NCBI RefSeq assembly: GCF_041228105.1
Contig: NZ_CP166097.1
Span: 1,984,001-2,048,000, forward strand
DNA from: Pectobacterium aroidearum
GTDB taxonomy: Bacteria; Pseudomonadota; Gammaproteobacteria; Enterobacterales; Enterobacteriaceae
Direction: 5' to 3'
DNA: 64,000 bases
Below are positions 52,676-64,000 of the stretch, one piece after another; the stretch's first letter is position 1, and each line of letters starts with the position of its first letter. The translations under genes were made by a program, and so were the position numbers. The notes below the pieces were generated by a model. That model had not been told where the DNA came from, searched no databases, and saw nothing but the letters and a program-made list of their open reading frames with translations.

Positions 52676-53542
52676 ATGGCAGTTATTAATACTAACATCA
52701 TGTCTCTGACTACTCAGAACAACCTGAACAAATCTCAGTCTGCTCTGGGTACCGCTATCGAGCGTCTGTCTTCTGGTCTGCGTATCAACAGCGCGAAAGA
52801 TGACGCAGCTGGCCAAGCGATCGCTAACCGTATGACCGCTCAGATTAAGGGTATGACCCAGGCCGCTCGTAACGCCAACGATGGTATCTCTCTGACTCAA
52901 ACTGCCGAAGGCAACCTGAACGAAATCAACAACAACTTGCAGCGTATCCGTGAGCTGGCAACTCAAGCAGCGAACGATCCTAACGGCAAGACTGACCGTG
53001 ATTCTATCGTTAAGGAAATGACCCAGCGTATTAACGAAGTTAACCGTGTTGCGCAGAGTGCTTCTTTCAACGGCACCAAACTGCTGGACGGTTCTGCAAG
53101 TGCTGGTATCATCATTCAGGTTGGTGCTAACACTGGCTCAACTGAAACCATCACTATCGACAGCACTGCGTTGATCAACGCAACGACTGGCGGTTCAATG
53201 AGTGATGTTGCTGATAAAATTACTTCTCTGGGTGCTGTTGCTACTGGCAGTTCTGCTAACGCCGCCGCTCAGGCACTGATCACCTCTCTGGATACTGCAC
53301 TGTCTGCTGTCGACACTGCTCGTAGTAACCTGGGTGCGATTCAGAACCGTTTCTCATCTACCATTACTAACCTGAACAACTCTATTAACAACCTGTCTTC
53401 TGCTCGTAGCCGTATCGAAGACGCTGACTACGCGACCGAAGTATCAAACATGAGCCGTAGCCAGATTCTGCAGCAGGCTGGTACTTCTGTACTGTCTCAG
53501 GCAAACCAGGTTCCACAGACTGTTCTGTCTCTGCTGCGTTAA
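52676..53542 (+). CDS. fliC: flagellin FliC (short form)
   Basis: FliC is the filament subunit. Only 288 residues long, it keeps the conserved D0/D1 parts (1-140: [20 protein letters not shown]; 200-288: ending [14 protein letters not shown]) and replaces the large variable D2/D3 domains with a small Ser/Thr/Ala/Gly-rich segment (about 140-200). There is no cysteine. The codon pattern is strongly biased toward common codons, as expected for high expression. A sugar-modification gene island follows on the same strand, so the Ser/Thr-rich segment is a candidate for O-glycosylation. Confidence 0.97.
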
Positions 53543-53576: not shown

Positions 53577-53603
53577 AACCAGCCCTTCGGGGCTGGTTTT
53601 TTT
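53577..53603 (+). terminator. rho-independent terminator of fliC
   Basis: AACCAGCCC-TTCG-GGGCTGGTT is a near-perfect stem with a stable tetraloop followed by T residues, 34 bases after fliC. It should isolate flagellin transcription from the glycosylation island. Confidence 0.95.
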
Positions 53604-53765
53604 ATGATGAATGCTCCATGTATTACACTGTTGTGAAGCAATATCACTCTTCCCTAACGTATGTTATACGCCTAATATTTCCCTCTATTTATAAGATTGC
53701 GTATCTTAATAGTTGATACGATAGTAGTAATTTCTTTTTCCTCTCATGAAAGGTTTTCCCTTCTG

Positions 53766-56700
53766 ATGACTCTAGATACTGCCGCCAGCCATCCAACAAC
53801 GAGCGCTGCTGATCGCTGTCCTTTGCCTTATACCTCACCGACGCATTTGCAGGCAGTAGCATACTTGCATGGCATTGTGGCAGCGGATCCTGATAGAGCA
53901 CGGGTACTGGAACTGGGATGCATGAGTGGCGCGAACCTGTTGCCATTTGCTACTGCTTATCCGCAGGCGCAGGCTATTGGTATCGATCTTGATGAGGAAA
54001 AAATTGCGCAAGGGCAGATGTGGGTTCAGCAATATGGATTAACCAATCTGCAACTCCAGGCAATGGATTTGGCATCGCTTTTGGACAGCAATCTTGGCAA
54101 ATTTGATTATATCATTGTCCATGGTGTTTTCGGACTGGTTAGCGGCGAAGCTCGCTCGGCGTTGTTAGCATATTGTCACCGTCATTTAAGTGCAAAAGGC
54201 GTGGTGTGTTTTTCCTATTCGACCTATCCTGGCGGGAAGACAGAGGAAATTCTGCAGGATGCTTTAAATCTGCACGCGAGTCTGGCAGAAACACCGGAAC
54301 AACAGCAAGCCAGTGCAAGAGCCATGTTGAGCTATTTATCGCTGGGCATGTCTGCAAATAACCCTCAAAGAGCCGCTATTGCGACTCTGGTTGAAGAAGC
54401 CGAACAACTGGGCGATGTGTCGCTAGCGCTCAACTATCTACAAGGCCTGAATCAACCCTGCTATCTGCTCGACTTTAATGCACTGATTACGCAAGAAGGC
54501 TTGGCTTATGTTGGCGAAATTGAGCCTCATACTGAGATTGCCTCTCACTATGGTGACCAGGTAGATAACTTACTGCGCACAATCTGTCCGACTGGCAATA
54601 AGATATTGAAACAGCAGTATCTGGATTTTAACGTTGGACGCAAACGTCGGTTTAGTCTGCTGGTCGCTGCTGAACGGGCGGAAAAGTTGGAATCGGAAAT
54701 TGATGTCTCGCGGCTGGATAAACTTTCCTGGGCCGGGAGTTTCCGCCGTAGCATGTTGAATAAAGGTTTGGCGTCCAACGCTTATTCGACTAATACTGGA
54801 ATACAGATATCGACCGATCACGAACTTACCCAGCAAATTCTGGATGTCTTAGGTAATGCGTGGCCTGCGAGTGTTTCCTTTAAGGAACTGATATTTAATA
54901 CGCATTTTCCTGAGAAAGAAAATGATAAACACGAACATGAAAACAATGTGCGTGAATCCCTTTATGCTTTGTTAAAGCAAGGGTTATCGAGCATTCATTT
55001 CTGTGTCGGTGAATGTGCTTATCGTAAAAGCGAATTCAGTACGCTGCGAGTATTACCGAATTGTGGGGGTAATTATCCAGTATTTAACTACTGGTATGAA
55101 TCTTTCACTTTACCGTCAGAGGCTCAAGGGCTAAAAATTCCGATGGACTTATTAGATGAGCAGGACGAGGGCTCATTAGCGCTGTTGGATGAATTGCATC
55201 ATAAAGGTCTGATGGTCGGCAGCGCTCTGGCGTGGCAACGTTACTTCCAAAAACGTTTGGAATTGGCGAAGGACGTCAAAGAAGTAATCCATAATATCAA
55301 TCCGTTGCTCATATATTCCAGCAACGCGAGTGGCGGTGGCTTATTCAAGGCTAGTGACGCTATAAAGGTTGAAAAAAGTCGAAAAGAATTCGTTAATAAC
55401 GCGATTGATGCGAAAGTCAAACATCAATTATATGAGTTATTAAAGCAACAGAAATACAATGAAGCTCGTTCTCTGGCAGAAGAGTTGACGATAAAACAGC
55501 CGAATAATTTACAGAATTGGATTACGCTAGAGAGAATTAACTTCGTTACTGGGGATAAAAATGCGGCAATATTCTCTTTGGCGAAAGTTATTTCCATGTA
55601 TAGCAATGCATGGTTAGTCTATAGTGAATTATCTAGTTTGTTGCACAATACATATCATTATTGGGAAGCAATTAACTTAGCCTATAAGGTTATTCGCTGT
55701 GATAGCAACGTTGCTGTCGCCTGGAATGTGGTGGCGCTTGTTTATTTAAAATTCGAAAATATGTCTGGGGCAGAAGTCTGTCTAGAAAAAGCGATGCAAC
55801 TTCTACCTAACGATGCGGCAATACTGAACGGTATGGCGATGGTGTTGGATAAAAAATCCAATGTCGAAAGTGCAATTGATTATTATCGCCGAGCGGTTGC
55901 TGCAGCTCCAGATGATTTAAGTATATACAGTAACCTTTTATTTGCTTTACTACATAATGCCAATATCCCGGCTTCAGAGGTTTTTGCTGAGCATTTATTG
56001 TATGGCGAAGCGGTAGAAAAACGGATTGGTGCGAGTACACCTGTTCACTATCTACAAAATAAAGATCCCAACAGAGTATTACGTATTGGTTTTGTTTCTG
56101 GAGATTTATATTCACATCCCGTCAGCAAATTCTTATCGCCGGTATGGAATGACATAAACCCTCAACACTTTGCCCTTTATGCCTATTCCACATCACATCA
56201 TTATGATGAAGTGACTCGTATGCTGGAAGAACGTTCAGCTGTGTGGCGTAACGTGGCGAGCAGTAGCGACACGGAATTATTCGAACTGATTAAACAGGAT
56301 GAGATAGATATTCTTTTCGATCTTTCCGGTCACACTGGCGATAACCGCTTGTCAATGTTCGCTATGAAGCCTGCACCGATCCAGATTAGCTGGATTGGTT
56401 ACCCGGGAACGACGGGATTAAAAGCGATGGATTACTATCTGGTCATGAACCATGCCCCATATCCAGAAGTTTTAGCCCATCAATTTACTGAAAAATTACT
56501 GTATGTGCTATTTGACCGACAATTTGAACCGGTAGTTAATGGCCCTGATGTTAACGATCTTCCTGCGTTGAAAAACGGTTATCTCACGTTCGCCAGCTTC
56601 AACAGACCGACTAAGATTAACGATACGGTATTATCGGCATGGGGAAAAATCCTCGTTCAGTTACCAACCAGCAAGATGATTATTGGTGCGTTGCCTAGCC

Positions 56701-57197
56701 AGCAGTCGAGAGAACATATACGTAAAAGGTTAGAGTCGCAGGGTGTTCAACCTGATCAGCTGATTTTCCGCGAACGTGTCAACATAATGAGTTATCTGGC
56801 TATGCACCAGGAAATTGATGTGCTGCTAGATACGTTCCCCTATACCGGGGGAACCACGACGAACTATGCGTTATGGATGGGCGTGCCGACTCTAACGCTG
56901 GCCGGTGAAACCTATGCTGCTCGCCAAGGGGTGGTAAACCTTGGCCAGGCTGGTTTGAATGAGTTTATTGCAGATTCAGAAGCTGACTATATCGACAAGG
57001 CTATTTCCTGGAATAATCGGTTGGATGAACTGAATCAAATTCGCCATAGTTTACGCAAGAAAATGGAGCATGACGTCGGTGCTGATAATGTAACCGCCGC
57101 CACCTATTTCGAGCAGGCGCTAAGAATGGTATGGAAAGCTTACTGTGCCGGTGAGCCACCTAAGAGTTATGCGATAGGTCACTCACCAGTGCCATGA
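53766..57197 (+). CDS. methyltransferase / TPR / GT41 (OGT-SPINDLY-type) fusion, probable flagellin O-glycosyltransferase
   Basis: This single chain of about 1143 residues joins several domains. Residues 20-190 form a class I SAM methyltransferase (motif I VLELGCMSG at 47-55, then GIDLDEEKI); 190-540 contain a methyltransferase-regulatory region; 563-730 are TPR repeats (YNEARSLAEEL onward); 770-1130 are a GT41 catalytic domain. The GT part has H784 in SGDLYSHPVSKF (the OGT catalytic-region histidine), K950 in FNRPTKIND and the nucleotide-sugar loop DTFPYTGGTTTNYALWMG from residue 1022. GT41 enzymes O-glycosylate Ser/Thr. Position directly after fliC points to flagellin as target. Start: the ATG at 53766 fits the domain better than the TTG at 53697, but neither has a strong ribosome-binding site. 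Confidence 0.88.
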   Translation: MTLDTAASHPTTSAADRCPLPYTSPTHLQAVAYLHGIVAADPDRARVLELGCMSGANLLPFATAYPQAQAIGIDLDEEKIAQGQMWVQQYGLTNLQLQAMDLASLLDSNLGKFDYIIVHGVFGLVSGEARSALLAYCHRHLSAKGVVCFSYSTYPGGKTEEILQDALNLHASLAETPEQQQASARAMLSYLSLGMSANNPQRAAIATLVEEAEQLGDVSLALNYLQGLNQPCYLLDFNALITQEGLAYVGEIEPHTEIASHYGDQVDNLLRTICPTGNKILKQQYLDFNVGRKRRFSLLVAAERAEKLESEIDVSRLDKLSWAGSFRRSMLNKGLASNAYSTNTGIQISTDHELTQQILDVLGNAWPASVSFKELIFNTHFPEKENDKHEHENNVRESLYALLKQGLSSIHFCVGECAYRKSEFSTLRVLPNCGGNYPVFNYWYESFTLPSEAQGLKIPMDLLDEQDEGSLALLDELHHKGLMVGSALAWQRYFQKRLELAKDVKEVIHNINPLLIYSSNASGGGLFKASDAIKVEKSRKEFVNNAIDAKVKHQLYELLKQQKYNEARSLAEELTIKQPNNLQNWITLERINFVTGDKNAAIFSLAKVISMYSNAWLVYSELSSLLHNTYHYWEAINLAYKVIRCDSNVAVAWNVVALVYLKFENMSGAEVCLEKAMQLLPNDAAILNGMAMVLDKKSNVESAIDYYRRAVAAAPDDLSIYSNLLFALLHNANIPASEVFAEHLLYGEAVEKRIGASTPVHYLQNKDPNRVLRIGFVSGDLYSHPVSKFLSPVWNDINPQHFALYAYSTSHHYDEVTRMLEERSAVWRNVASSSDTELFELIKQDEIDILFDLSGHTGDNRLSMFAMKPAPIQISWIGYPGTTGLKAMDYYLVMNHAPYPEVLAHQFTEKLLYVLFDRQFEPVVNGPDVNDLPALKNGYLTFASFNRPTKINDTVLSAWGKILVQLPTSKMIIGALPSQQSREHIRKRLESQGVQPDQLIFRERVNIMSYLAMHQEIDVLLDTFPYTGGTTTNYALWMGVPTLTLAGETYAARQGVVNLGQAGLNEFIADSEADYIDKAISWNNRLDELNQIRHSLRKKMEHDVGADNVTAATYFEQALRMVWKAYCAGEPPKSYAIGHSPVP

Positions 57198-57251
57198 AAA
57201 TGATCGGTTTCATGGATGCACGTCATCAGGCTGACTGATAGAAATGATCGA

Positions 57252-57281
57252 GATAATGGCATGAACGCTTATGCCATTATC
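57252..57281 (+). terminator. stem-loop after the GT41 fusion gene
   Basis: GATAATGGCAT (57252-57262) and ATGCCATTATC (57271-57281) pair perfectly over 11 bp with an 8-base loop, 55 bases after the stop. The remainder of the 300-base gap to the aminotransferase gene holds no visible gene and no convincing FliA promoter. Confidence 0.6.
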
Positions 57282-57497
57282 GGTAAAAGATAATTTTCAA
57301 CGTATTGCCGAATAAGTAGAGGTCGGCTACGGATATTATAGAAAGAGAATGCGGCATTAATATTTTTACCTGGGGGCAGCAAACCTGAGCATTTTCTTTT
57401 TATGTCATCAAAATGGGTAAGTTTTCAGCGCGTTGATAGCTGTGAGTCAAGGGCGGTAGCGTTGATTGCGAATAATCTATAAGCGGAAGATGGTGAA

Positions 57498-58607
57498 ATG
57501 AAAAAACCAGTGTATGTAACAAGCCCGTTATTACCGCCTTTGGATGAGTTTACTCCTTATCTTGAAGAAATATGGGAAAATAAGTGGCTAACTAATAATG
57601 GGACATTCCATCAGCGTTTAGAGCAAGCTCTGGCTGATTATCTTGGCGTTCCATACCTTAGTTTATTTTCCAATGGCACACTGGCTTTATTAACTGCTTT
57701 GCAAGCGTTACGTATCACTGGCGAGGTCATTACTACTCCTTACTCATTTGTGGCAACATCGCATACATTATTGTGGAATGGGTTAAAACCCGTCTTTGTT
57801 GATATTGATCCAGTAACATGTAATCTTGATCCTTCTAAATTAGAGCAGGCTATTACGCCAGCAACGTCTGCAATTTTACCCGTGCATTGTTATGGATTAC
57901 CTGCAGATGTTGACCGTATTCAAAATATAGCTGATATATATGGCCTAAAAGTGATTTATGACGCGGCTCATGCTTTTGGTGTTAAGAGGAATGATGTCAG
58001 CATATTAAATCATGGCGATCTTTCGATTCTCAGTTTTCATGCGACGAAAGTTTTTAGCACTATCGAAGGTGGTGCGATTATTTCTCAAGATGAGAAAACG
58101 AAAAAAAGAATTGATTATCTTAAGAATTTTGGCTTCGTTGATGAAGTAACCGTTGTTGCTCCTGGTATTAATGCAAAAATGAATGAGGTTCAGGCCGCAT
58201 TCGGATTGCTTCAATTAAAATATATTGATTCAGCATTGGAGCAGCGTAAGAACATTTATCTAAGATATTGTGAGCTTTTAAAAAACATTGCGGGAATTAA
58301 TGTTGTGAACATTCCTGAGAATGTGACCTGGAATTATGCTTATTTTCCTATTTTCTTCTCTGATGATTTCCCTAAAAAAAGAGACGAAGTATACAATATA
58401 ATGAGAGAAAGAAACATATATGCCCGCCGATACTTTTATCCGCTAATTAGCACCTTTCCAATGTATCGAGGGTTGGACTCAGCTAAAGAAGGTGGCCTGC
58501 CAACGGCAACGCACATTGCTGACAATGTGCTCTGTCTTCCTATTTATCCTGATTTGTCAGATGAAAGTATATTGGATGTTGTTAGGTGTATTTCTGATTG
58601 TGCGTAA
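57498..58607 (+). CDS. DegT/DnrJ-family sugar aminotransferase, VioA-like
   Basis: This PLP-dependent enzyme of the DegT/DnrJ/EryC1/StrS family aminates nucleotide keto-sugars. The 369 residues have the PLP lysine K184 in SFHATKVFSTIEGG, D155 in YDAAHAFG and the substrate loop PYSFVATSHTLLWNG. The opening PVYVTSPLLPPLDEF and WLTNNG resemble VioA/dTDP-4-amino-4,6-dideoxyglucose (viosamine) transaminases, so dTDP-Qui4N is the likely product; PseC-type and other C4 transaminases are alternatives. It is plus strand inside the glycosylation island. No dTDP-glucose synthesis genes lie in the window. Confidence 0.85.
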   Translation: MKKPVYVTSPLLPPLDEFTPYLEEIWENKWLTNNGTFHQRLEQALADYLGVPYLSLFSNGTLALLTALQALRITGEVITTPYSFVATSHTLLWNGLKPVFVDIDPVTCNLDPSKLEQAITPATSAILPVHCYGLPADVDRIQNIADIYGLKVIYDAAHAFGVKRNDVSILNHGDLSILSFHATKVFSTIEGGAIISQDEKTKKRIDYLKNFGFVDEVTVVAPGINAKMNEVQAAFGLLQLKYIDSALEQRKNIYLRYCELLKNIAGINVVNIPENVTWNYAYFPIFFSDDFPKKRDEVYNIMRERNIYARRYFYPLISTFPMYRGLDSAKEGGLPTATHIADNVLCLPIYPDLSDESILDVVRCISDCA

Positions 58608-58647
58608 CGTAAGCGAAGGTTTTTTGATTAGAAAAACAATAGAGTCA

Positions 58648-58680
58648 ATTACAAACTATCAATATACGATGGTTTGTAAT
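58648..58680 (+). terminator. 13-bp stem-loop between the aminotransferase and WbqC genes
   Basis: ATTACAAACTATC and GATGGTTTGTAAT pair over 13 bp with one G-U, around a 7-base loop, 40 bases after the aminotransferase stop. It may be a processing or attenuation site inside the island operon. Confidence 0.5.
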
Positions 58681-58733
58681 TTACAATTCATATCTGTATT
58701 GGGTAGCGGTTTTAGTAGTGCCAGGAGAGCGAG

Positions 58734-59435
58734 TTGATAAAGTATGCGGTAATGCAACCTTATTTCTTTCCTTACATTGGCTATTTTCAGTTGATGGCCG
58801 AAGTAGATGTTTTTGTGGTTTACGATAATATAAAATACACCAAAAAAGGATGGATAAATCGAAACCGCATTTTGTTAAATGGGAAAGATAGTACGTTTAG
58901 TCTACCATTGAAGAAAGACTCTGATTTTTTAGATGTTAAAGATAGGGTACTGTCAGAGACATTTAATAGAGAAGACTTAATCAACAAAATATGTGGTGCT
59001 TATCGTCGTGCTCCTTATTTTAAAGATGTTTTTCCATTGCTGGAAAATATAATTAATTATCGAGATGATAATTTGTTTAACTATATATTTTTCTCATTGA
59101 AAAGCATTAAAGAATATCTTGGTTTAGCATGTGATATAAAAATATCCTCTTCTATCAATATCGATCACTCACTAAAATCTCAAGACAAAGTGCTTGCATT
59201 TGGGAACGCTCTCGGCGCGAAAACGTACAGTAACCCACCTGGTGGTATTTCTCTTTATTCCCAAGACGCCTTTGCGTCACATGGAATGACTCTGAATTTT
59301 ATCCAGCCAAATAGTATTATTTATAAACAATTCGATGAACCTTTTGTGGCTTGGTTATCAATCATTGATGTCATGATGTTTAATTCCAGTGATGAGGTAC
59401 TACGCCTTATTACTACTGAATATGAGTTGATATAA
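58734..59435 (+). CDS. WbqC-family protein
   Basis: The 233 residues match the WbqC family from the start: KYAVMQPYFFPYIGYFQL, then VFVVYDNIKYTKKGWINRNR. The family occurs in O-antigen and sugar-modification clusters; biochemical function is unsettled, and links with amino-sugar (Qui4N) acylation are an inference from gene neighbourhoods. Start is TTG with AGGAGAG about five bases upstream; the first in-frame ATG would remove conserved residues. The gene following starts three bases later, indicating an operon. Confidence 0.85.
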   Translation: MIKYAVMQPYFFPYIGYFQLMAEVDVFVVYDNIKYTKKGWINRNRILLNGKDSTFSLPLKKDSDFLDVKDRVLSETFNREDLINKICGAYRRAPYFKDVFPLLENIINYRDDNLFNYIFFSLKSIKEYLGLACDIKISSSINIDHSLKSQDKVLAFGNALGAKTYSNPPGGISLYSQDAFASHGMTLNFIQPNSIIYKQFDEPFVAWLSIIDVMMFNSSDEVLRLITTEYELI

Positions 59436-59437
59436 AT

Positions 59438-60397
59438 ATGTTCCAGTGGAAAAAGTTAGGTAAGGTATTCACCCCGCAAGAGATTAATGACCGCCCCTGG
59501 CTTAAAGAGTTTGCACAGGCACCCGCAACGCTGGTCTTTGATGATTTTGTCCGTGTTTATTTCTCTTGTCGCCCACCAGCTGATGAACATGGCATGTATG
59601 TTAGCTATTCTGCCTGGGTTGACCTGGATCGTCATAATCTTTTCAATGTATTACGTGTTTCCGAAACCCCTATTTTACCATTAGGGCAATCGGGTGAATT
59701 TGACGAATTCGGTACCTATCCGGTATCCGTTGTTCGTGATGAAAATATTTTCCGTGCATATTATGCCGGCTGGACTCGGTGTGAGTCTGTACCTTTCAAC
59801 GTTGCCATCGGCATGGCCACTAGTGATGATGGTGATGTATTCCGCAAAGCTGGGCCAGGACCGATTATTAGCTATTCTCCTGAAGAACCCTTTGTTATGA
59901 GCGGGCCGAAAATTCGCCGTTTTAATGGCGAATGGCAGCTATTCTATATCGCAGGTCGTAGATGGAAACGGGTTGATGGTAGAGCAGAGCCTGTTTACAA
60001 AATTCGCATGGCGTTATCGAGTGATGGCATAAATTGGCGGAAGATCAATAAAGATTTAATCAGCAGCCGAATTGAAGAAGATGAAGCGCAGGCGAGTCCC
60101 GATGTGTTTTATGCAAACGGCAAGTATCATATGTTCTTTTGCTACCGCTACAGCGAACATTATCGAGGCAAAAAGCATGGGTATCGTATTGGATATGCAT
60201 GGAGCTCCGATCTCATTGACTGGCATCGTGATGATGAAAAAGCAGGAATTGATGTGTCTGAAACAGGGTGGGACTCGGAAATGATCAGCTATCCCCATGT
60301 ATTTGAACTTGATGGTAAGGTCTATATGGCATATTTAGGCGATCAAGTTGGGCGCTATGGTTTTGGTTTGGCACAGTTAGAAGGAGAATTGCGCTAA
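59438..60397 (+). CDS. five-bladed beta-propeller (GH43/GH32-like fold) protein, copy 1
   Basis: The 319 residues show repeated propeller blades: VFDDFVRVYFS, FRAYYAGWTR, WQLFYIAGRRWKR, KYHMFFCYRYSEH and KVYMAYLGD. Conserved acidic positions lie in FDDF, FDEFGTYP, EDEAQASPDV and WDSEM. This resembles furanosidase/arabinanase folds, but intracellular location (no signal peptide) and the setting inside a sugar-modification operon argue for a biosynthetic or transfer role rather than polysaccharide breakdown. It overlaps copy 2 by one base (TAATG). Confidence 0.75.
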   Translation: MFQWKKLGKVFTPQEINDRPWLKEFAQAPATLVFDDFVRVYFSCRPPADEHGMYVSYSAWVDLDRHNLFNVLRVSETPILPLGQSGEFDEFGTYPVSVVRDENIFRAYYAGWTRCESVPFNVAIGMATSDDGDVFRKAGPGPIISYSPEEPFVMSGPKIRRFNGEWQLFYIAGRRWKRVDGRAEPVYKIRMALSSDGINWRKINKDLISSRIEEDEAQASPDVFYANGKYHMFFCYRYSEHYRGKKHGYRIGYAWSSDLIDWHRDDEKAGIDVSETGWDSEMISYPHVFELDGKVYMAYLGDQVGRYGFGLAQLEGELR

Positions 60398-61365
60398 TGC
60401 TGACATGGCGTAAACATGGGCTAATCTATTCACCTCAGGCGCATCCACCTTTGATTGGTGGGGCAGGGTATGCCCAATCCCCTCAGGCCTTGGTATTTGA
60501 TGATTTTGTTCGTATATATTTTTCTACTCGCGAAATAGATGAGAAAAATAATAAATTCATCAGTCGAGTTTCTTATGTAGATATGGATAAGAATCTGCAG
60601 GAGATCTTGAACGTTAGTGCGGCACCTGTGATCGATCACGCAGAATTAGGCACGTTTGATGAACACGGCATTTTTCCCTTCAACGTTTTGCGCCACAATG
60701 ATGCAGTAATGGCTTGGACCACAGGATGGAATCGCCGGGTCTCTGTTTCTGTGGATACCTCGATAGGTTTGGCAATTAGTCGTGATGGCGGTAATACCTT
60801 TCAACGGCATGCGACAGGCCCTGTGATGTCGGCTTCCTTGCACGAACCTTATTTGGTCGGGGATGCATTTGTTCTGCATCTCGAAGGGCGCTTCCATATG
60901 TGGTACATCTACGGCGTGGGTTGGAAAAGGCAACAGTCTGATTCTCCACCAGACCGCGTTTATAAAATTGCACATGCTGTTTCTGACGATGGCATCGACT
61001 GGGTGCGAGAGAGTAAGCCTATCATTGCCGATCGGCTTGGTGATGATGAATGTCAGGCGTTGCCGACAGTGATCAAAGTGGGCAATCGATATCACATGAT
61101 TTTTTGTTATCGCGAGTGTTTCGATTTTCGCTTAGGTGCCGGACGTGGATACCGTCTTGGTTATGCCTGGTCAGACGATCTTATGACATGGCATAGAGAT
61201 GATTCTCAGGTGCCTGCTATTTCGGGACCTGGGGAATGGGATAGCGAGATGCAGTGTTATCCGCACCTTTTCCGAAGTGATGAGAAGGTATACTTGCTCT
61301 ATAACGGCAACGCATTCGGAAAAGAAGGCTTTGGTTTGGCTGAGTTGACTGCATGCAGCGAATGA
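60397..61365 (+). CDS. five-bladed beta-propeller protein, copy 2 (paralogue)
   Basis: This is a diverged tandem copy of the preceding gene: the same WRKHGLIY opening, FDDFVRIYFSTR, FDEHGIFP, GWKRQ, DDECQALPTV, YHMIFCYRE and WDSEMQCYPHLF landmarks appear in the same order over 322 residues. Retention of both copies suggests division of labour or a heteromer. It has no signal peptide. Its end overlaps the GNAT gene start. Confidence 0.75.
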   Translation: MLTWRKHGLIYSPQAHPPLIGGAGYAQSPQALVFDDFVRIYFSTREIDEKNNKFISRVSYVDMDKNLQEILNVSAAPVIDHAELGTFDEHGIFPFNVLRHNDAVMAWTTGWNRRVSVSVDTSIGLAISRDGGNTFQRHATGPVMSASLHEPYLVGDAFVLHLEGRFHMWYIYGVGWKRQQSDSPPDRVYKIAHAVSDDGIDWVRESKPIIADRLGDDECQALPTVIKVGNRYHMIFCYRECFDFRLGAGRGYRLGYAWSDDLMTWHRDDSQVPAISGPGEWDSEMQCYPHLFRSDEKVYLLYNGNAFGKEGFGLAELTACSE

Positions 61366-61805
61366 TTATACGTCAGAATAGCGCCACCGCGGAGGATATC
61401 GCATCGCATCTGCGTGCCTGTGATGATGCATTTGTCCGTTCGCTAGAGCACCGAGTTGAAATAGCGGCCTATGCCGCTAAGATAGCTCGCCTTGCTCATT
61501 GCATTGAAGGATGGAGAGACGAACGTTTAGTCGGCCTTGTCGCTTCATATTTTAATGAACAAACAAGGATTGCATTTATTACTAATGTTTCTGTACTCGT
61601 GGAAGCTCAGGGCATGGGTTTCGGCGGTATTTTGTTGGAACACTGTATCGCGAAAATGCAAACGCTAGGTGCGATAGAAATACGTTTGGAAGTTGAAGAA
61701 AGTAATCAGGTTGCCAGATACTTTTATCTAAAACATGCTTTTATTCAGTCAGGAATTAGCGGCAATATCCTGCAAATGATCCGACATTGTGAGACGAGAA
61801 CATGA
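61353..61805 (+). CDS. GNAT-family N-acyltransferase
   Basis: The 150 residues form one GNAT domain: motif A VSVLVEAQGMGFGGILLEHC (acyl-CoA pyrophosphate loop QGMGFGG) and motif B ARYFYLKHAFIQSG. In this setting it plausibly N-acylates the 4-amino group of the sugar made by the aminotransferase. Two in-frame starts exist: ATG 61353 and ATG 61362; the latter overlaps the previous stop as ATGA. It overlaps the next gene by four bases. Confidence 0.82.
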   Translation: MQRMIIRQNSATAEDIASHLRACDDAFVRSLEHRVEIAAYAAKIARLAHCIEGWRDERLVGLVASYFNEQTRIAFITNVSVLVEAQGMGFGGILLEHCIAKMQTLGAIEIRLEVEESNQVARYFYLKHAFIQSGISGNILQMIRHCETRT

Positions 61806-62542
61806 CAATCAACAGAAATTATGATCAGGAAATTAAGGATACAGCAGGACATAAATACGCCTATAATTTCGACTTTGATGTGATGCATCCTTTTATGGTT
61901 CGTGCATTCACTCCTTTCTTTCGTCCAGGAAATTTATTGGAGCTAGGGAGCTTCAAAGGTGATTTTACTTCACGGCTACAGGAACATTTCAACGATATCA
62001 CATGCGTTGAAGCGTCCGCAGAAGCGATTTCATATGCTAAAGGTCGGTTAAAAGACGGAGTAACTTATATTCATTCACGCTTTGAAGATGTTCAATTACC
62101 TCGTCGTTACGATAATATTGTATTGACGCATGTGCTTGAGCATATTGATGACCCCATCGCTCTGCTTAAGCGTATTAATGATGAATGGTTAGCGGAAGGA
62201 GGACGTTTATTCCTCGTTTGCCCTAATGCTAATGCAGCTTCCCGCCAGATAGCCGTAAAAATGGGGATTATTTCCCATAATTCGGCGGTGACTGAAGCAG
62301 AATTTGAGCATGGACATCGTTGTACGTATGCACTGGATACACTTGAGCGCGACGCGAGTCTTGCTGGATTACACGTTGCCTACCGTTCAGGTATATTCTT
62401 TAAAGCTTTAGCGAATTTTCAATGGGACAAATTATTGCAAACCGATATCATAACAAATGAATATTTAGAAGGTTGCTATCAGCTGGGCCAACAATACCCT
62501 GATCTCTGTTCTAGTATATTTTTATTGTGTAAAAAAAAATAA
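61802..62542 (+). CDS. class I SAM-dependent methyltransferase
   Basis: The 246 residues show a standard SAM fold: motif I LLELGSFKGDF, acidic residue after the second strand (CVEASAEAI), VLTHVLEHIDDP as motif II, and a GGRLFLVCPN strand. It probably O-methylates the sugar or the flagellin glycan, as VioM-like enzymes do in other viosamine islands (inference). It overlaps the GNAT gene (ATGA) and ends in a lysine run. Confidence 0.85.
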   Translation: MTINRNYDQEIKDTAGHKYAYNFDFDVMHPFMVRAFTPFFRPGNLLELGSFKGDFTSRLQEHFNDITCVEASAEAISYAKGRLKDGVTYIHSRFEDVQLPRRYDNIVLTHVLEHIDDPIALLKRINDEWLAEGGRLFLVCPNANAASRQIAVKMGIISHNSAVTEAEFEHGHRCTYALDTLERDASLAGLHVAYRSGIFFKALANFQWDKLLQTDIITNEYLEGCYQLGQQYPDLCSSIFLLCKKK

Positions 62543-62586
62543 TCTGATTTTAATTTTTATATAACTAATGAACATGGAGGTTTATT

Positions 62587-64000
62587 ATGCAAAGCTACGC
62601 TCATGCCAAAGCTATGCATCAATTTTATCGGGATGTATTTACAAGAGATATTGAGCTTGGTGAGACGGGTAATATTCCTCTGAGAGTCATAGACAGTGTG
62701 GTTAAAGAATTTAATTGCGATGTGTTATTTGTTGCCAGAGAGCTGAGTTTACATGATAGCGGGCTGCCATCCGACAAAGATAAAGCGTTAAAACAACTAC
62801 TTGTCACGATGGCCCATGCTAATATGGCTTTCGATGAAAAATGGAGTGGATATCAGAAAAAGCTGCCTGATGAATATGTTATTGGTATTCGCAATTCATT
62901 AATAGATATACTGAAATTAAATCCTAATATAGAATACCTTGTCATAGCAATTCAAATTTTATTTAGAATTGGTGACGTTGACTCATCGGTTAATTTGATA
63001 AATAACAATTTCTCGACATTAAAGAACTCCCCGGCAGCTTTCAGAATATTGTTGATGATCTGTATTATTGAAGAGGATTATGAACTTACCTTACCTTTAA
63101 TAAAGGAAATGACATCTAATCAACATTTAATAGGTGAAGATTTGATGGTTTTATTAATGCTGGTTTGTTCGATTTATAGGCTTGGTGGATATCCAGATTC
63201 TTTTATTAACTTCTCTTCGCTCTTAGACGAAAAAGCTCATTCTATTTCAAATGATGACTATAATTGGATAATAAGAAAAAACCATCAGAATAAGAAGACA
63301 ACCATCATCATAGCTTGTGATGTTAAATATTACTATGAGCACGCTATACCAGCATTGTATTCAATTTATGAAACAAATAAAGACAGTTTTAATGTCCATA
63401 TTCATGTTTATAATATTGATGATGAAACATCTATTGATATTAAAAATAAAAATAAGCAGTTTCCTGAGCTAAATATTTCTTGTACGGCAGAGCGTTTATC
63501 TACGTCTTCAAACATGAGTGCCGATTATGCATCAAGGCGATTTGTTTTTGCTAATTACGCTTTAAGTGCATTAGATACCCCTTTGCTAATTTTAGATGCT
63601 GATTGTTTATTAAGAAAGGATTGGCTATCGTCAATTCAAACACAGGCATTTGACTTGATTTTGACGACTACTGAAAATGCGCCTTTTTGGGAAAACGCAT
63701 CGGCAGGTTTTGTTTACCTGGGTGGTGGGGAAGAGTCAAGGAATTATATTGATAGAGTATCGTCATTCATTCATGTTAATTTAGTCAACAATAATCATGT
63801 ATGGTTTTTAGATCAAGTTGCGCTTTCTGCCGCCCTTGATTATGTAAAAGATAAAAATACTGTTTTCAGGATTAATTCCTCATTTGTTTGTGACATTAGC
63901 CATACTGACTACTCATTTATGTGGGTAGTAACCACTATGAAAAATATTGAAGGAAGATATTTTTCATATAAAAATTATCTTATTGATAAATATAGTGTTA
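62587..64000 (+). CDS. putative glycosyltransferase (GT-A fold), truncated by the window edge
   Basis: The frame stays open from the ATG at 62587 (GGAGG six bases upstream) to the last base, at least 471 codons. The N-terminal 235 residues are helical and of unknown family. From about residue 238 a GT-A, GT8-like domain begins (KTTIIIACDVKYYYEHAIPA, split from VHIHVYNID) and reaches a DxD metal-binding motif, D337-A-D339, in TPLLILDADCLLRKDWL; WFLDQVALSAAL follows. No signal peptide is seen. Likely adds or extends the flagellin glycan. Its codon use is AT-rich compared with the flagellar genes. Confidence 0.8.
   Translation, partial: MQSYAHAKAMHQFYRDVFTRDIELGETGNIPLRVIDSVVKEFNCDVLFVARELSLHDSGLPSDKDKALKQLLVTMAHANMAFDEKWSGYQKKLPDEYVIGIRNSLIDILKLNPNIEYLVIAIQILFRIGDVDSSVNLINNNFSTLKNSPAAFRILLMICIIEEDYELTLPLIKEMTSNQHLIGEDLMVLLMLVCSIYRLGGYPDSFINFSSLLDEKAHSISNDDYNWIIRKNHQNKKTTIIIACDVKYYYEHAIPALYSIYETNKDSFNVHIHVYNIDDETSIDIKNKNKQFPELNISCTAERLSTSSNMSADYASRRFVFANYALSALDTPLLILDADCLLRKDWLSSIQTQAFDLILTTTENAPFWENASAGFVYLGGGEESRNYIDRVSSFIHVNLVNNNHVWFLDQVALSAALDYVKDKNTVFRINSSFVCDISHTDYSFMWVVTTMKNIEGRYFSYKNYLIDKYSV

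What the first reader, a model, noticed from the sequence alone, without database searches (positions are those of the whole stretch)
53766..64000. Flagellin glycosylation island with a viosamine-like sugar and a GT41 fusion
Directly after fliC, seven further plus-strand genes, most overlapping or nearly so, follow a GT41 enzyme: VioA-like aminotransferase, WbqC protein, two beta-propeller paralogues, GNAT acyltransferase, methyltransferase, and a GT-A glycosyltransferase. Seen: order, overlaps and motifs. Family knowledge: VioA makes dTDP-Qui4N, and viosamine decorates P. syringae flagellin. Inference: this locus makes an N-acylated, methylated 4-amino-4,6-dideoxyhexose and attaches it to FliC. 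The pairing of WbqC and twin propellers with a GT41 fusion is not a set I know described.
Basis: partly seen in the sequence, partly recalled or inferred. Interest (0 to 1): 0.85.

Follow-up and report, generated by a model that had tools for sequence, protein, structure and literature searches.

The report
Mobile sugar cassette in flagellin island
Next to the flagellin gene sits a set of sugar-making genes, found as the same set in very distant bacteria with one exchangeable part, that most likely decorates the flagellum with an unusual amino sugar whose core chemistry is still unknown.

Summary
In detail: an eight-gene, low-G+C insert lies between fliC and fliA (window 53766-64009; the last gene ends 9 bases outside). 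As a kind of locus it is known: an enterobacterial flagellin glycosylation island with a methyltransferase-TPR-GT41 fusion. Much the same gene set is already listed between fliA and fliC of Dickeya zeae WH1 (PMC9650423). What I did not find described is the scope of its middle part. Aminotransferase, WbqC, two propellers, an acyl-transfer enzyme and a methyltransferase recur together across phyla (28 propeller-seeded loci; 8 of 8 further methyltransferase-seeded loci), mostly without flagellin genes in the stretch held. Each of these 36 loci carries exactly one of the N-acyl module classes I searched for: GNAT type 1 or 2, formyltransferase, or ATP-grasp. The aminotransferase is 61% identical to E. 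coli VioA; the likely dTDP precursor enzyme is encoded in the host's ECA cluster. Best reading: a plug-in cassette for an N-acylated, methylated viosamine-type sugar, here put on FliC by the GT41 fusion and extended by the GT-A enzyme. The chemistry of WbqC and the twin propellers is unknown.

The parts
52676..53542 (+). fliC, presumed acceptor flagellin (288 aa)
53578..53604 (+). terminator-like hairpin and T run after fliC
   Evidence: read from the sequence
53766..57197 (+). methyltransferase + MethyTransf_Reg + TPR + GT41 fusion, presumed flagellin O-glycosyltransferase
   Evidence: PF13844 E 2.8e-46, PF10119 E 1e-18, PF13649, TPR
57498..58607 (+). VioA/DesI-type sugar 4-aminotransferase
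   Evidence: PF01041; best PDB match 2po3; E. coli vioA; 61% to VioA
58734..59435 (+). WbqC-family protein, conserved core of the cassette
   Evidence: (PF08889 E 3.8e-67), model
59438..60397 (+). five-bladed propeller protein 1, conserved core
   Evidence: fold by homology to propeller 2; not modelled itself
60397..61365 (+). five-bladed propeller protein 2, conserved core
   Evidence: model
61353..61805 (+). GNAT acyltransferase, occupant of the exchangeable N-acyl slot
   Evidence: searches (PF00583; RimI-like), slot
61802..62542 (+). class I methyltransferase, most conserved core gene; near-identical relative solved as 2p7h/2p7i
62587..64000 (+). GT-A-like protein (473 aa; stop 9 bases beyond the window), presumed second glycosyltransferase; absent from one of three congeneric islands

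Best explanation
This is a flagellin glycosylation island built around a mobile cassette. Presumed working: the host's dTDP-4-keto-6-deoxyglucose (RffG in the ECA cluster) is aminated by the VioA-type enzyme to dTDP-4-amino-4,6-dideoxyglucose (viosamine, Qui4N). The enzyme in the exchangeable slot, here a GNAT, puts an acyl group on the 4-amino group. WbqC, the two propellers and the methyltransferase, inherited together, add a constant methylated feature of unknown structure. The MTase-TPR-GT41 fusion then transfers the sugar to serine or threonine of FliC in the cytosol, and the GT-A-like enzyme, where present, adds a second sugar. Shown here: gene order, families, co-inheritance, exchange of the slot occupant between loci, a precursor gene in the genome. 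Inferred: every reaction, the order of steps, the cytosolic route, and FliC as acceptor.
For: VioA-like enzyme. Precursor: one gene over the RmlB-type cut-off, in the ECA cluster, which I recognised by eye from its ORFs. Cassette: of 28 propeller-2-seeded loci (L005-L032; L033, at a contig edge with split frames, set aside) 28 have WbqC, 28 propeller 1, 27 the methyltransferase, 26 an aminotransferase, and all 28 exactly one of the N-acyl module classes searched for (GNAT type 1 in 16, ATP-grasp 8, GNAT type 2 2, formyltransferase 2). Reverse test seeded by the methyltransferase: 8 of 8 strong hits not in the first set have aminotransferase, WbqC, both propellers and one N-acyl class (GNAT1 6, GNAT2 1, formyltransferase 1). 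GNAT type 2 resembles PseH, an N-acetyltransferase of a 4-amino-4,6-dideoxy sugar. Distances of the four core genes correlate (r 0.71-0.84; 36 loci), those of GNAT with them less (0.26-0.60; 19 loci). Flagellin: fliC-fliA position in window and 3 of 3 congeners; relatives of the GT-A-like protein lie in the same stretch as fliC or fliD in 15 of 16 family loci; Dickeya mutants of the two glycosyltransferase genes have lighter FliC (PMC6637903, passages). Seven of the eight proteins have no 19-residue window above 1.34 on the Kyte-Doolittle scale.
Against: I know of no solved glycan of a cassette bearer. Most cassettes show no flagellin gene in the stretch held. The GNAT best resembles RimI, which from general knowledge acetylates an alpha-amine of a protein, so acylation directly on N4 is not assured. 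The aminotransferase falls far below the DesI equivalog cut-off (288 of 650 bits), though annotated E. coli VioA does too (331 bits). In some relatives the aminotransferase is only 35-46% identical, so the amino sugar may differ. The slot classes were defined by reading these same loci, and most other ORFs around were not typed, so other acyltransferases could be present and exclusivity was not a blind test. L012 lacks an aminotransferase match and L024 the methyltransferase. Five weaker methyltransferase hits carry only partial or divergent sets. The GT-A-like protein has one borderline hydrophobic window (1.71), so a membrane-bound step is not excluded.
Confidence: 0.68

Rival explanations
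1. WbqC and the propellers extend the glycan rather than tailor the nucleotide sugar: the propellers act as glycosyltransferases or phosphorylases running in the synthetic direction, like GH130-fold enzymes, and the methyltransferase caps the chain.
For: Closest sequence matches of the propellers include beta-1,2-mannobiose/oligomannan phosphorylases (E 2.9e-11 and 1.4e-9) and the fold is of that clan. Both paralogues keep the same acidic residues (E150, E218, D282 invariant in 54 sequences), so both look active. The two plasmid cassettes of Rhizobium that I opened show one annotated glycosyltransferase each.
Against: No step tested; the matches are to the fold and not to a catalytic signature; the window island has two other presumed glycosyltransferases.
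Confidence: 0.25
2. WbqC forms an amide: it activates an amino or hydroxy acid and joins it to the 4-amino group, and the slot enzyme then acetylates or formylates that acid's amine, as in N-acetylglycyl-Qui4N O antigens.
For: An aminotransferase gene directly precedes WbqC in 18 of 28 and 7 of 8 loci, also in a Bernardetia set where only one propeller was recognised. The window GNAT is RimI-like. Of the nine rows with probability 0.2 or more among the 50 Foldseek rows shown (of 636) for the WbqC model, seven are Tyr-tRNA synthetases or variants, or a phosphopantetheine adenylyltransferase. From memory, wbqC was named in E. coli O121, whose O antigen carries N-acetylglycyl-Qui4N.
Against: No Foldseek match is significant (best E 0.088). 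Profile comparison with 26 TyrRS and 30 PanC sequences gave 0.88% and 0.19% probability, in other regions than the suspected motif; unrelated controls gave 0.12-0.29%, TyrRS against PanC 58%. The E. coli O-antigen clusters with vioA that I opened (2 of 162 records with a match) have no annotated WbqC.
Confidence: 0.2
3. The island decorates another surface glycan (LPS or exopolysaccharide) and lies beside fliC only because that site is an insertion hotspot.
For: In 7 of 28 relatives a polysaccharide exporter pair (L010, L013, L018, L025) or flippase (L009, L014, L028) is near; one member of each was typed by Pfam, the rest by clustering. The fliC-fliA site also accepts unrelated inserts (PMC4875605).
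Against: GT41 and GT-A-like partners lie with fliC across several genera; no flippase, ligase or polymerase family among the island's proteins; a comparable Dickeya island acts on FliC.
Confidence: 0.08

Closest known systems
Enterobacterial flagellin glycosylation islands (De Maayer and Cowan 2016, PMC4875605; parts 1-4 of 6 read)
   Same: fliC-fliA position, low G+C, GT41 with fused methyltransferase domain, DegT aminotransferase, acetyl- and methyltransferases
Seven-gene insert between fliA and fliC of Dickeya zeae WH1 (PMC9650423, one passage read)
   Same: Methyltransferase, glycosylase, WbqC, DegT aminotransferase, methyltransferase-regulatory-domain protein and two hypothetical proteins
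   Different: Listed there as genes absent from four other D. zeae genomes; the passage makes no cassette, cross-phylum or sugar claim
Seven-gene island of Pectobacterium atrosepticum SCRI1043 (PMC12310338, part 1 of 4 and passages read)
   Same: Island between fliA and fliC; the solved methyltransferase 2p7h/2p7i, nearly identical to the window's, is from that strain by my recollection (ECA1738)
   Different: Gene content not given in what I read
Dickeya dadantii 3937 six-gene island (PMC6637903, passages read)
   Same: GT41-type enzyme, sugar transaminase, methyltransferase and NDP-sugar transferase between fliA and fliC; FliC mass is lower in mutants of the two glycosyltransferase genes
   Different: The middle holds 'carbamoyl phosphate synthase' and oxidoreductase genes instead of WbqC, propellers and GNAT; L168 reproduces that order with an ATP-grasp protein
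Viosamine island of Pseudomonas syringae pv. tabaci 6605 (PMC3927599, passages read)
   Same: VioA, an acylation branch and a methyltransferase make a modified viosamine for flagellin
   Different: Acyl group made by VioS/VioR/ACP/VioB, not found here; transferred by VioT onto rhamnose; no WbqC or propellers among its seven ORFs; island lies between glutamine synthase and histidine kinase genes
Caulobacter FlmG (PMC7591256, abstract and passages)
   Same: TPR N-terminal part plus GT-B-type glycosyltransferase acting on flagellin in the cytosol
   Different: Sugar is pseudaminic acid; no fused methyltransferase mentioned in the passages read

Membership tests
Enterobacterial flagellin glycosylation island | Insert between fliC and fliA | tested here: met
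Enterobacterial flagellin glycosylation island | Glycosyltransferase and sugar-biosynthesis genes in the insert | tested here: met
Enterobacterial flagellin glycosylation island | Lower G+C than its surroundings | tested here: met
   41.2% against 47.8% upstream and 49.6-49.8% downstream; whole-genome value not computed
Enterobacterial flagellin glycosylation island | Flagellin actually glycosylated by it | not testable with these tools
   needs mass spectrometry; Dickeya precedent only
P. syringae-type viosamine island | VioA-type aminotransferase | tested here: met
   61% identity to E. coli VioA; P. syringae VioA itself not compared
P. syringae-type viosamine island | VioS, VioR, ACP, VioB acyl branch | tested here: not met
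   no ketoacyl synthase, ketoacyl reductase or ACP family among the eight proteins at E <= 0.001; VioB itself not compared
GT41 (SPINDLY-type) glycosyltransferase | TPR repeats plus both halves of the GT41 domain | tested here: met
GH43/GH32/GH117/GH130 clan | Five-bladed propeller fold | tested here: met
   propeller 2 model: 279 PDB matches at E <= 0.001, best 5.1e-13; propeller 1 by alignment only
GH130 phosphorylase | Family cut-off reached | tested here: not met
   25.9 bits against 26 for propeller 2, 21.2 for propeller 1
GH130 phosphorylase | Catalytic acid and phosphate-binding residues | not tested
   no residue map of GH130 was at hand
HIGH-type adenylating enzymes (PanC, TyrRS) | Profile similarity over the HIGH motif | tested here: not met
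   hhalign 0.19-0.88%, positive control 58%, unrelated controls 0.12-0.29%
HIGH-type adenylating enzymes (PanC, TyrRS) | Matching fold | tested here: inconclusive
   no significant Foldseek match; best rows enriched in TyrRS

The most novel reading that the evidence does not exclude
WbqC, the twin propellers and the methyltransferase are an undescribed, cross-phylum set for a constant sugar modification, in which two propellers of a glycoside-hydrolase fold work as cytosolic biosynthetic enzymes rather than degradative ones, and whose N-acyl group is a swappable module (acetyl-type, formyl, ATP-grasp-made). Bacteria of many phyla would share one surface-sugar core with exchangeable caps, plugged into flagellin, polysaccharide or free-standing plasmid loci.
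Probability: 0.4. Interest if true: 0.75.

Novelty: new variant of a known kind. Interest (0 to 1): 0.57.

Why it matters
Flagellin islands are usually described one by one. Here the variable middle is a unit that can be followed across phyla, with a built-in natural experiment: the same core with acetyl-, formyl- or ATP-grasp-type acyl modules. That gives a clear way to find what WbqC, called functionally uncharacterized in the one paper passage I read on it (PMC5532660), and GH-fold propellers do in sugar synthesis, and to predict surface sugars of unstudied bacteria. In the host it bears on how flagellin is marked.

Tried and rejected
WbqC as a PanC/TyrRS relative: suggested by its QPYFFPYIGY motif and weak Foldseek rows, not borne out by profile comparison (4 of 30 TyrRS loci without the expected motif were left out); kept only as a rival. 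WbqC against the PDB by sequence: nothing (best E 1.1). GT-A-like protein: no Pfam, NCBIfam or PDB match. E. coli genomes for a WbqC relative by DNA: no match. Propeller 2 in 50,697 phage records: no match. Island read through from fliC or driven by a sigma-28 site of its own: not supported. Literature on the set: searches; only D. zeae WH1 was found to list it. Papers not named as read were seen only in search listings. The P. parmentieri phage-resistance paper (PMC8304393, passages) concerned other loci.

Rows dropped: L033 from cassette counts (contig edge, split frames); L020 and L024 from the core tree for want of a gene; the divergent methyltransferase hits L048, L049, L068, L069, L070 from the 8-of-8 count: in none were both propellers recognised; L048, L049 and L069 lie by flagellin genes, and L070 is a 3.3 kb contig. 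L144 has the contig length and gene pattern of L030 and was not counted.
Full report
Observation. The gene list in the finding is right. After fliC (52676-53542) come eight plus-strand genes ending at window-equivalent 64009, followed by fliA at 64362. Pfam and NCBIfam give: methyltransferase + MethyTransf_Reg + TPR + GT41; DegT aminotransferase; WbqC (E 3.8e-67); two weak glycoside-hydrolase-type propellers; GNAT; class I methyltransferase; and a last protein with no family. The island is 41.2% G+C, window 1-52675 is 47.8%, the stretches downstream 49.6-49.8%. A hairpin with a T run closes fliC, and of seven sigma-28-like sites in the window (up to 3 mismatches; 0.95 expected) none lies in the island.

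Known frame. A fliC-fliA insert with a GT41 enzyme fused to a methyltransferase domain and a DegT aminotransferase is a standard enterobacterial flagellin glycosylation island: 307 of 2,000 genomes have such islands in PMC4875605, with the methyltransferase domain on all GT41 enzymes there but eight. In the host's genus 4 of 25 genomes (own included) carry this island's methyltransferase, and a second genome of the same species does not. The three other carriers hold GT41 and the whole six-gene cassette between fliC and fliA, 87-98% identical in the cassette proteins, but one lacks the GT-A-like gene. The methyltransferase is nearly identical to PDB 2p7h/2p7i, which I recall as P. atrosepticum ECA1738; that strain is said to have a seven-gene island (PMC12310338). 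D. zeae WH1 has a seven-gene fliA-fliC insert with much the same annotation (PMC9650423). So the set itself is not new to print.

The cassette. Searching a collection of 84,980 species genomes with patterns from propeller 2 gave 29 loci at 40-59% identity, in records titled as Bacteroidetes, Proteobacteria, Rhodopirellula, Paenibacillus and other Bacillota, Spirochaetia, Elusimicrobia, Campylobacteraceae and others; many are metagenome bins, so single labels may err. In L005-L032 (28 loci; L033 set aside) WbqC and propeller 1 are present in 28, the methyltransferase in 27 (not L024), an aminotransferase in 26 (not L012; L020 ends at the contig edge). The methyltransferase is the best conserved (65-75% to the window's; mean column identity 73% against 57-66% for the others). 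As a reverse test I searched by the methyltransferase instead: 4 of 394 genomes of the order (E <= 1e-50) and 11 of 398 of the phylum (E <= 1e-70), own genome included in both; the samples overlap. Eight strong hits (E < 1e-120) were new, and 8 of 8 carry aminotransferase, WbqC and both propellers. Five weaker hits carry partial or divergent sets. On two Rhizobium plasmids the six genes plus one glycosyltransferase stand alone, with no other sugar genes annotated within about 10 kb.

The exchangeable slot. Each of the 28 and each of the 8 holds exactly one of the N-acyl classes searched for: GNAT type 1 (16 + 6); an ATP-grasp enzyme (8 + 0), with a second methyltransferase in 6 of the 8, a metallophosphoesterase in 5 and a reductase in 4; GNAT type 2 (2 + 1); or a formyltransferase (2 + 1). 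GNAT type 2 resembles PseH (E 4.2e-14) and the formyltransferases PurN. The classes were drawn from these loci and other ORFs were mostly not typed, so this is an observation and not a blind test. Across 36 loci the pairwise distances of WbqC, propellers and methyltransferase correlate at r 0.71-0.84, the aminotransferase with them at 0.63-0.67, GNAT with them at 0.26-0.60 in 19 loci (near-duplicates L027/L029 and divergent L049, L068 included; all correlations exceed most shuffles). The simplest meaning: a constant core with a replaceable acyl group on the amine.

Spread. A FastTree of the four core proteins (41 rows, 1157 columns) puts the window with its congeners (support 1.0), while another genus of the same family, G1311 (L183), groups with L061 and L064 (support 0.92) and not with the window; both lie in one wider clade with Kiloniella and Rhizobium-type loci (0.98). 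In G1311 the order is fliC-GT41-AT-GT-A-WbqC-propeller 1-propeller 2-GNAT-methyltransferase-fliA. So the cassette probably entered the same slot at least twice in this family. The GT-A-like protein has relatives in 16 other genomes of the 295 sampled in the family; fliC is in the same stretch in 14 and fliD in one more, GT41 in 13: it belongs to flagellin islands, whereas the cassette does not. Of the cassettes, 4 of 28 and 2 of 8 have a fliC/fliD-like match in the stretch held, GT41 3 of 28 and 2 of 8.

Chemistry. The aminotransferase is 61% identical to two E. coli VioA proteins and 29% to the host's WecE, and the best PDB match is 2po3 (DesI by recollection). Aminotransferases of two distant cassettes (38% and 45% identical to the window's) also match 2po3 best. 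The only gene over the dTDP-glucose dehydratase cut-off lies in the ECA cluster; seven weaker matches exist. In D. dadantii FliC masses are 32,170 (wild type), 31,034 and 28,890 Da in mutants of two glycosyltransferase genes; my arithmetic: the differences of 1,136 and 2,144 Da would fit seven sites with a hexose (162) on a 306-Da first residue. This is inference about a related island.

Core proteins. The WbqC model is confident (pLDDT 92.9) but matches no solved fold significantly. The propeller 2 model (93.5) is a GH43/GH130-clan propeller; both paralogues keep E150, E218, Q220 and D282 (propeller 2 numbering) in all 54 sequences, which speaks against degenerate copies. Seven of the eight proteins have no 19-residue window above 1.34 on the Kyte-Doolittle scale; the GT-A-like protein reaches 1.71, a borderline value. 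A cytosolic route without lipid carrier is therefore likely but not shown.

Verdict. The locus is a known kind of island; its cassette with a swappable acyl slot is, as far as my searches reach (an open-access library only), not described as such. The function of WbqC and the propellers remains the open question.

Noticed in passing
L078 8883-14818; L079 8857-14812: Free-standing cassette plus one glycosyltransferase on Rhizobium plasmids, near a LuxR regulator and proline iminopeptidase genes; propeller 1 is annotated there as glycosylase or exo-alpha-sialidase.
   Followed up: partly
window 62587-64000: Protein family without any Pfam, NCBIfam or PDB match, lying with GT41 and fliC in several genera.
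   Followed up: partly
L049, L068, L080: Divergent sets with a single recognised propeller and a match to the Bernardetia acetyltransferase, perhaps an older form of the cassette.
   Followed up: no
L168 1431-11341: Island of GT41, aminotransferase, ATP-grasp, GFO/IDH/MocA oxidoreductase, FkbM methyltransferase and GT-A-like protein matching the published D. dadantii order.
   Followed up: yes
L171 2755-7428 and L183 8623-8990: GT41 and GNAT reading frames appear split in G1311; described only.
   Followed up: no
L026 7075-8418: A B12-binding radical SAM gene sits inside this cassette beside the formyltransferase.
   Followed up: no
window 9351, 12154, 16949, 27012, 35289: Further sigma-28-like matches (2-3 mismatches) elsewhere in the window; seven in all against 0.95 expected.
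   Followed up: no
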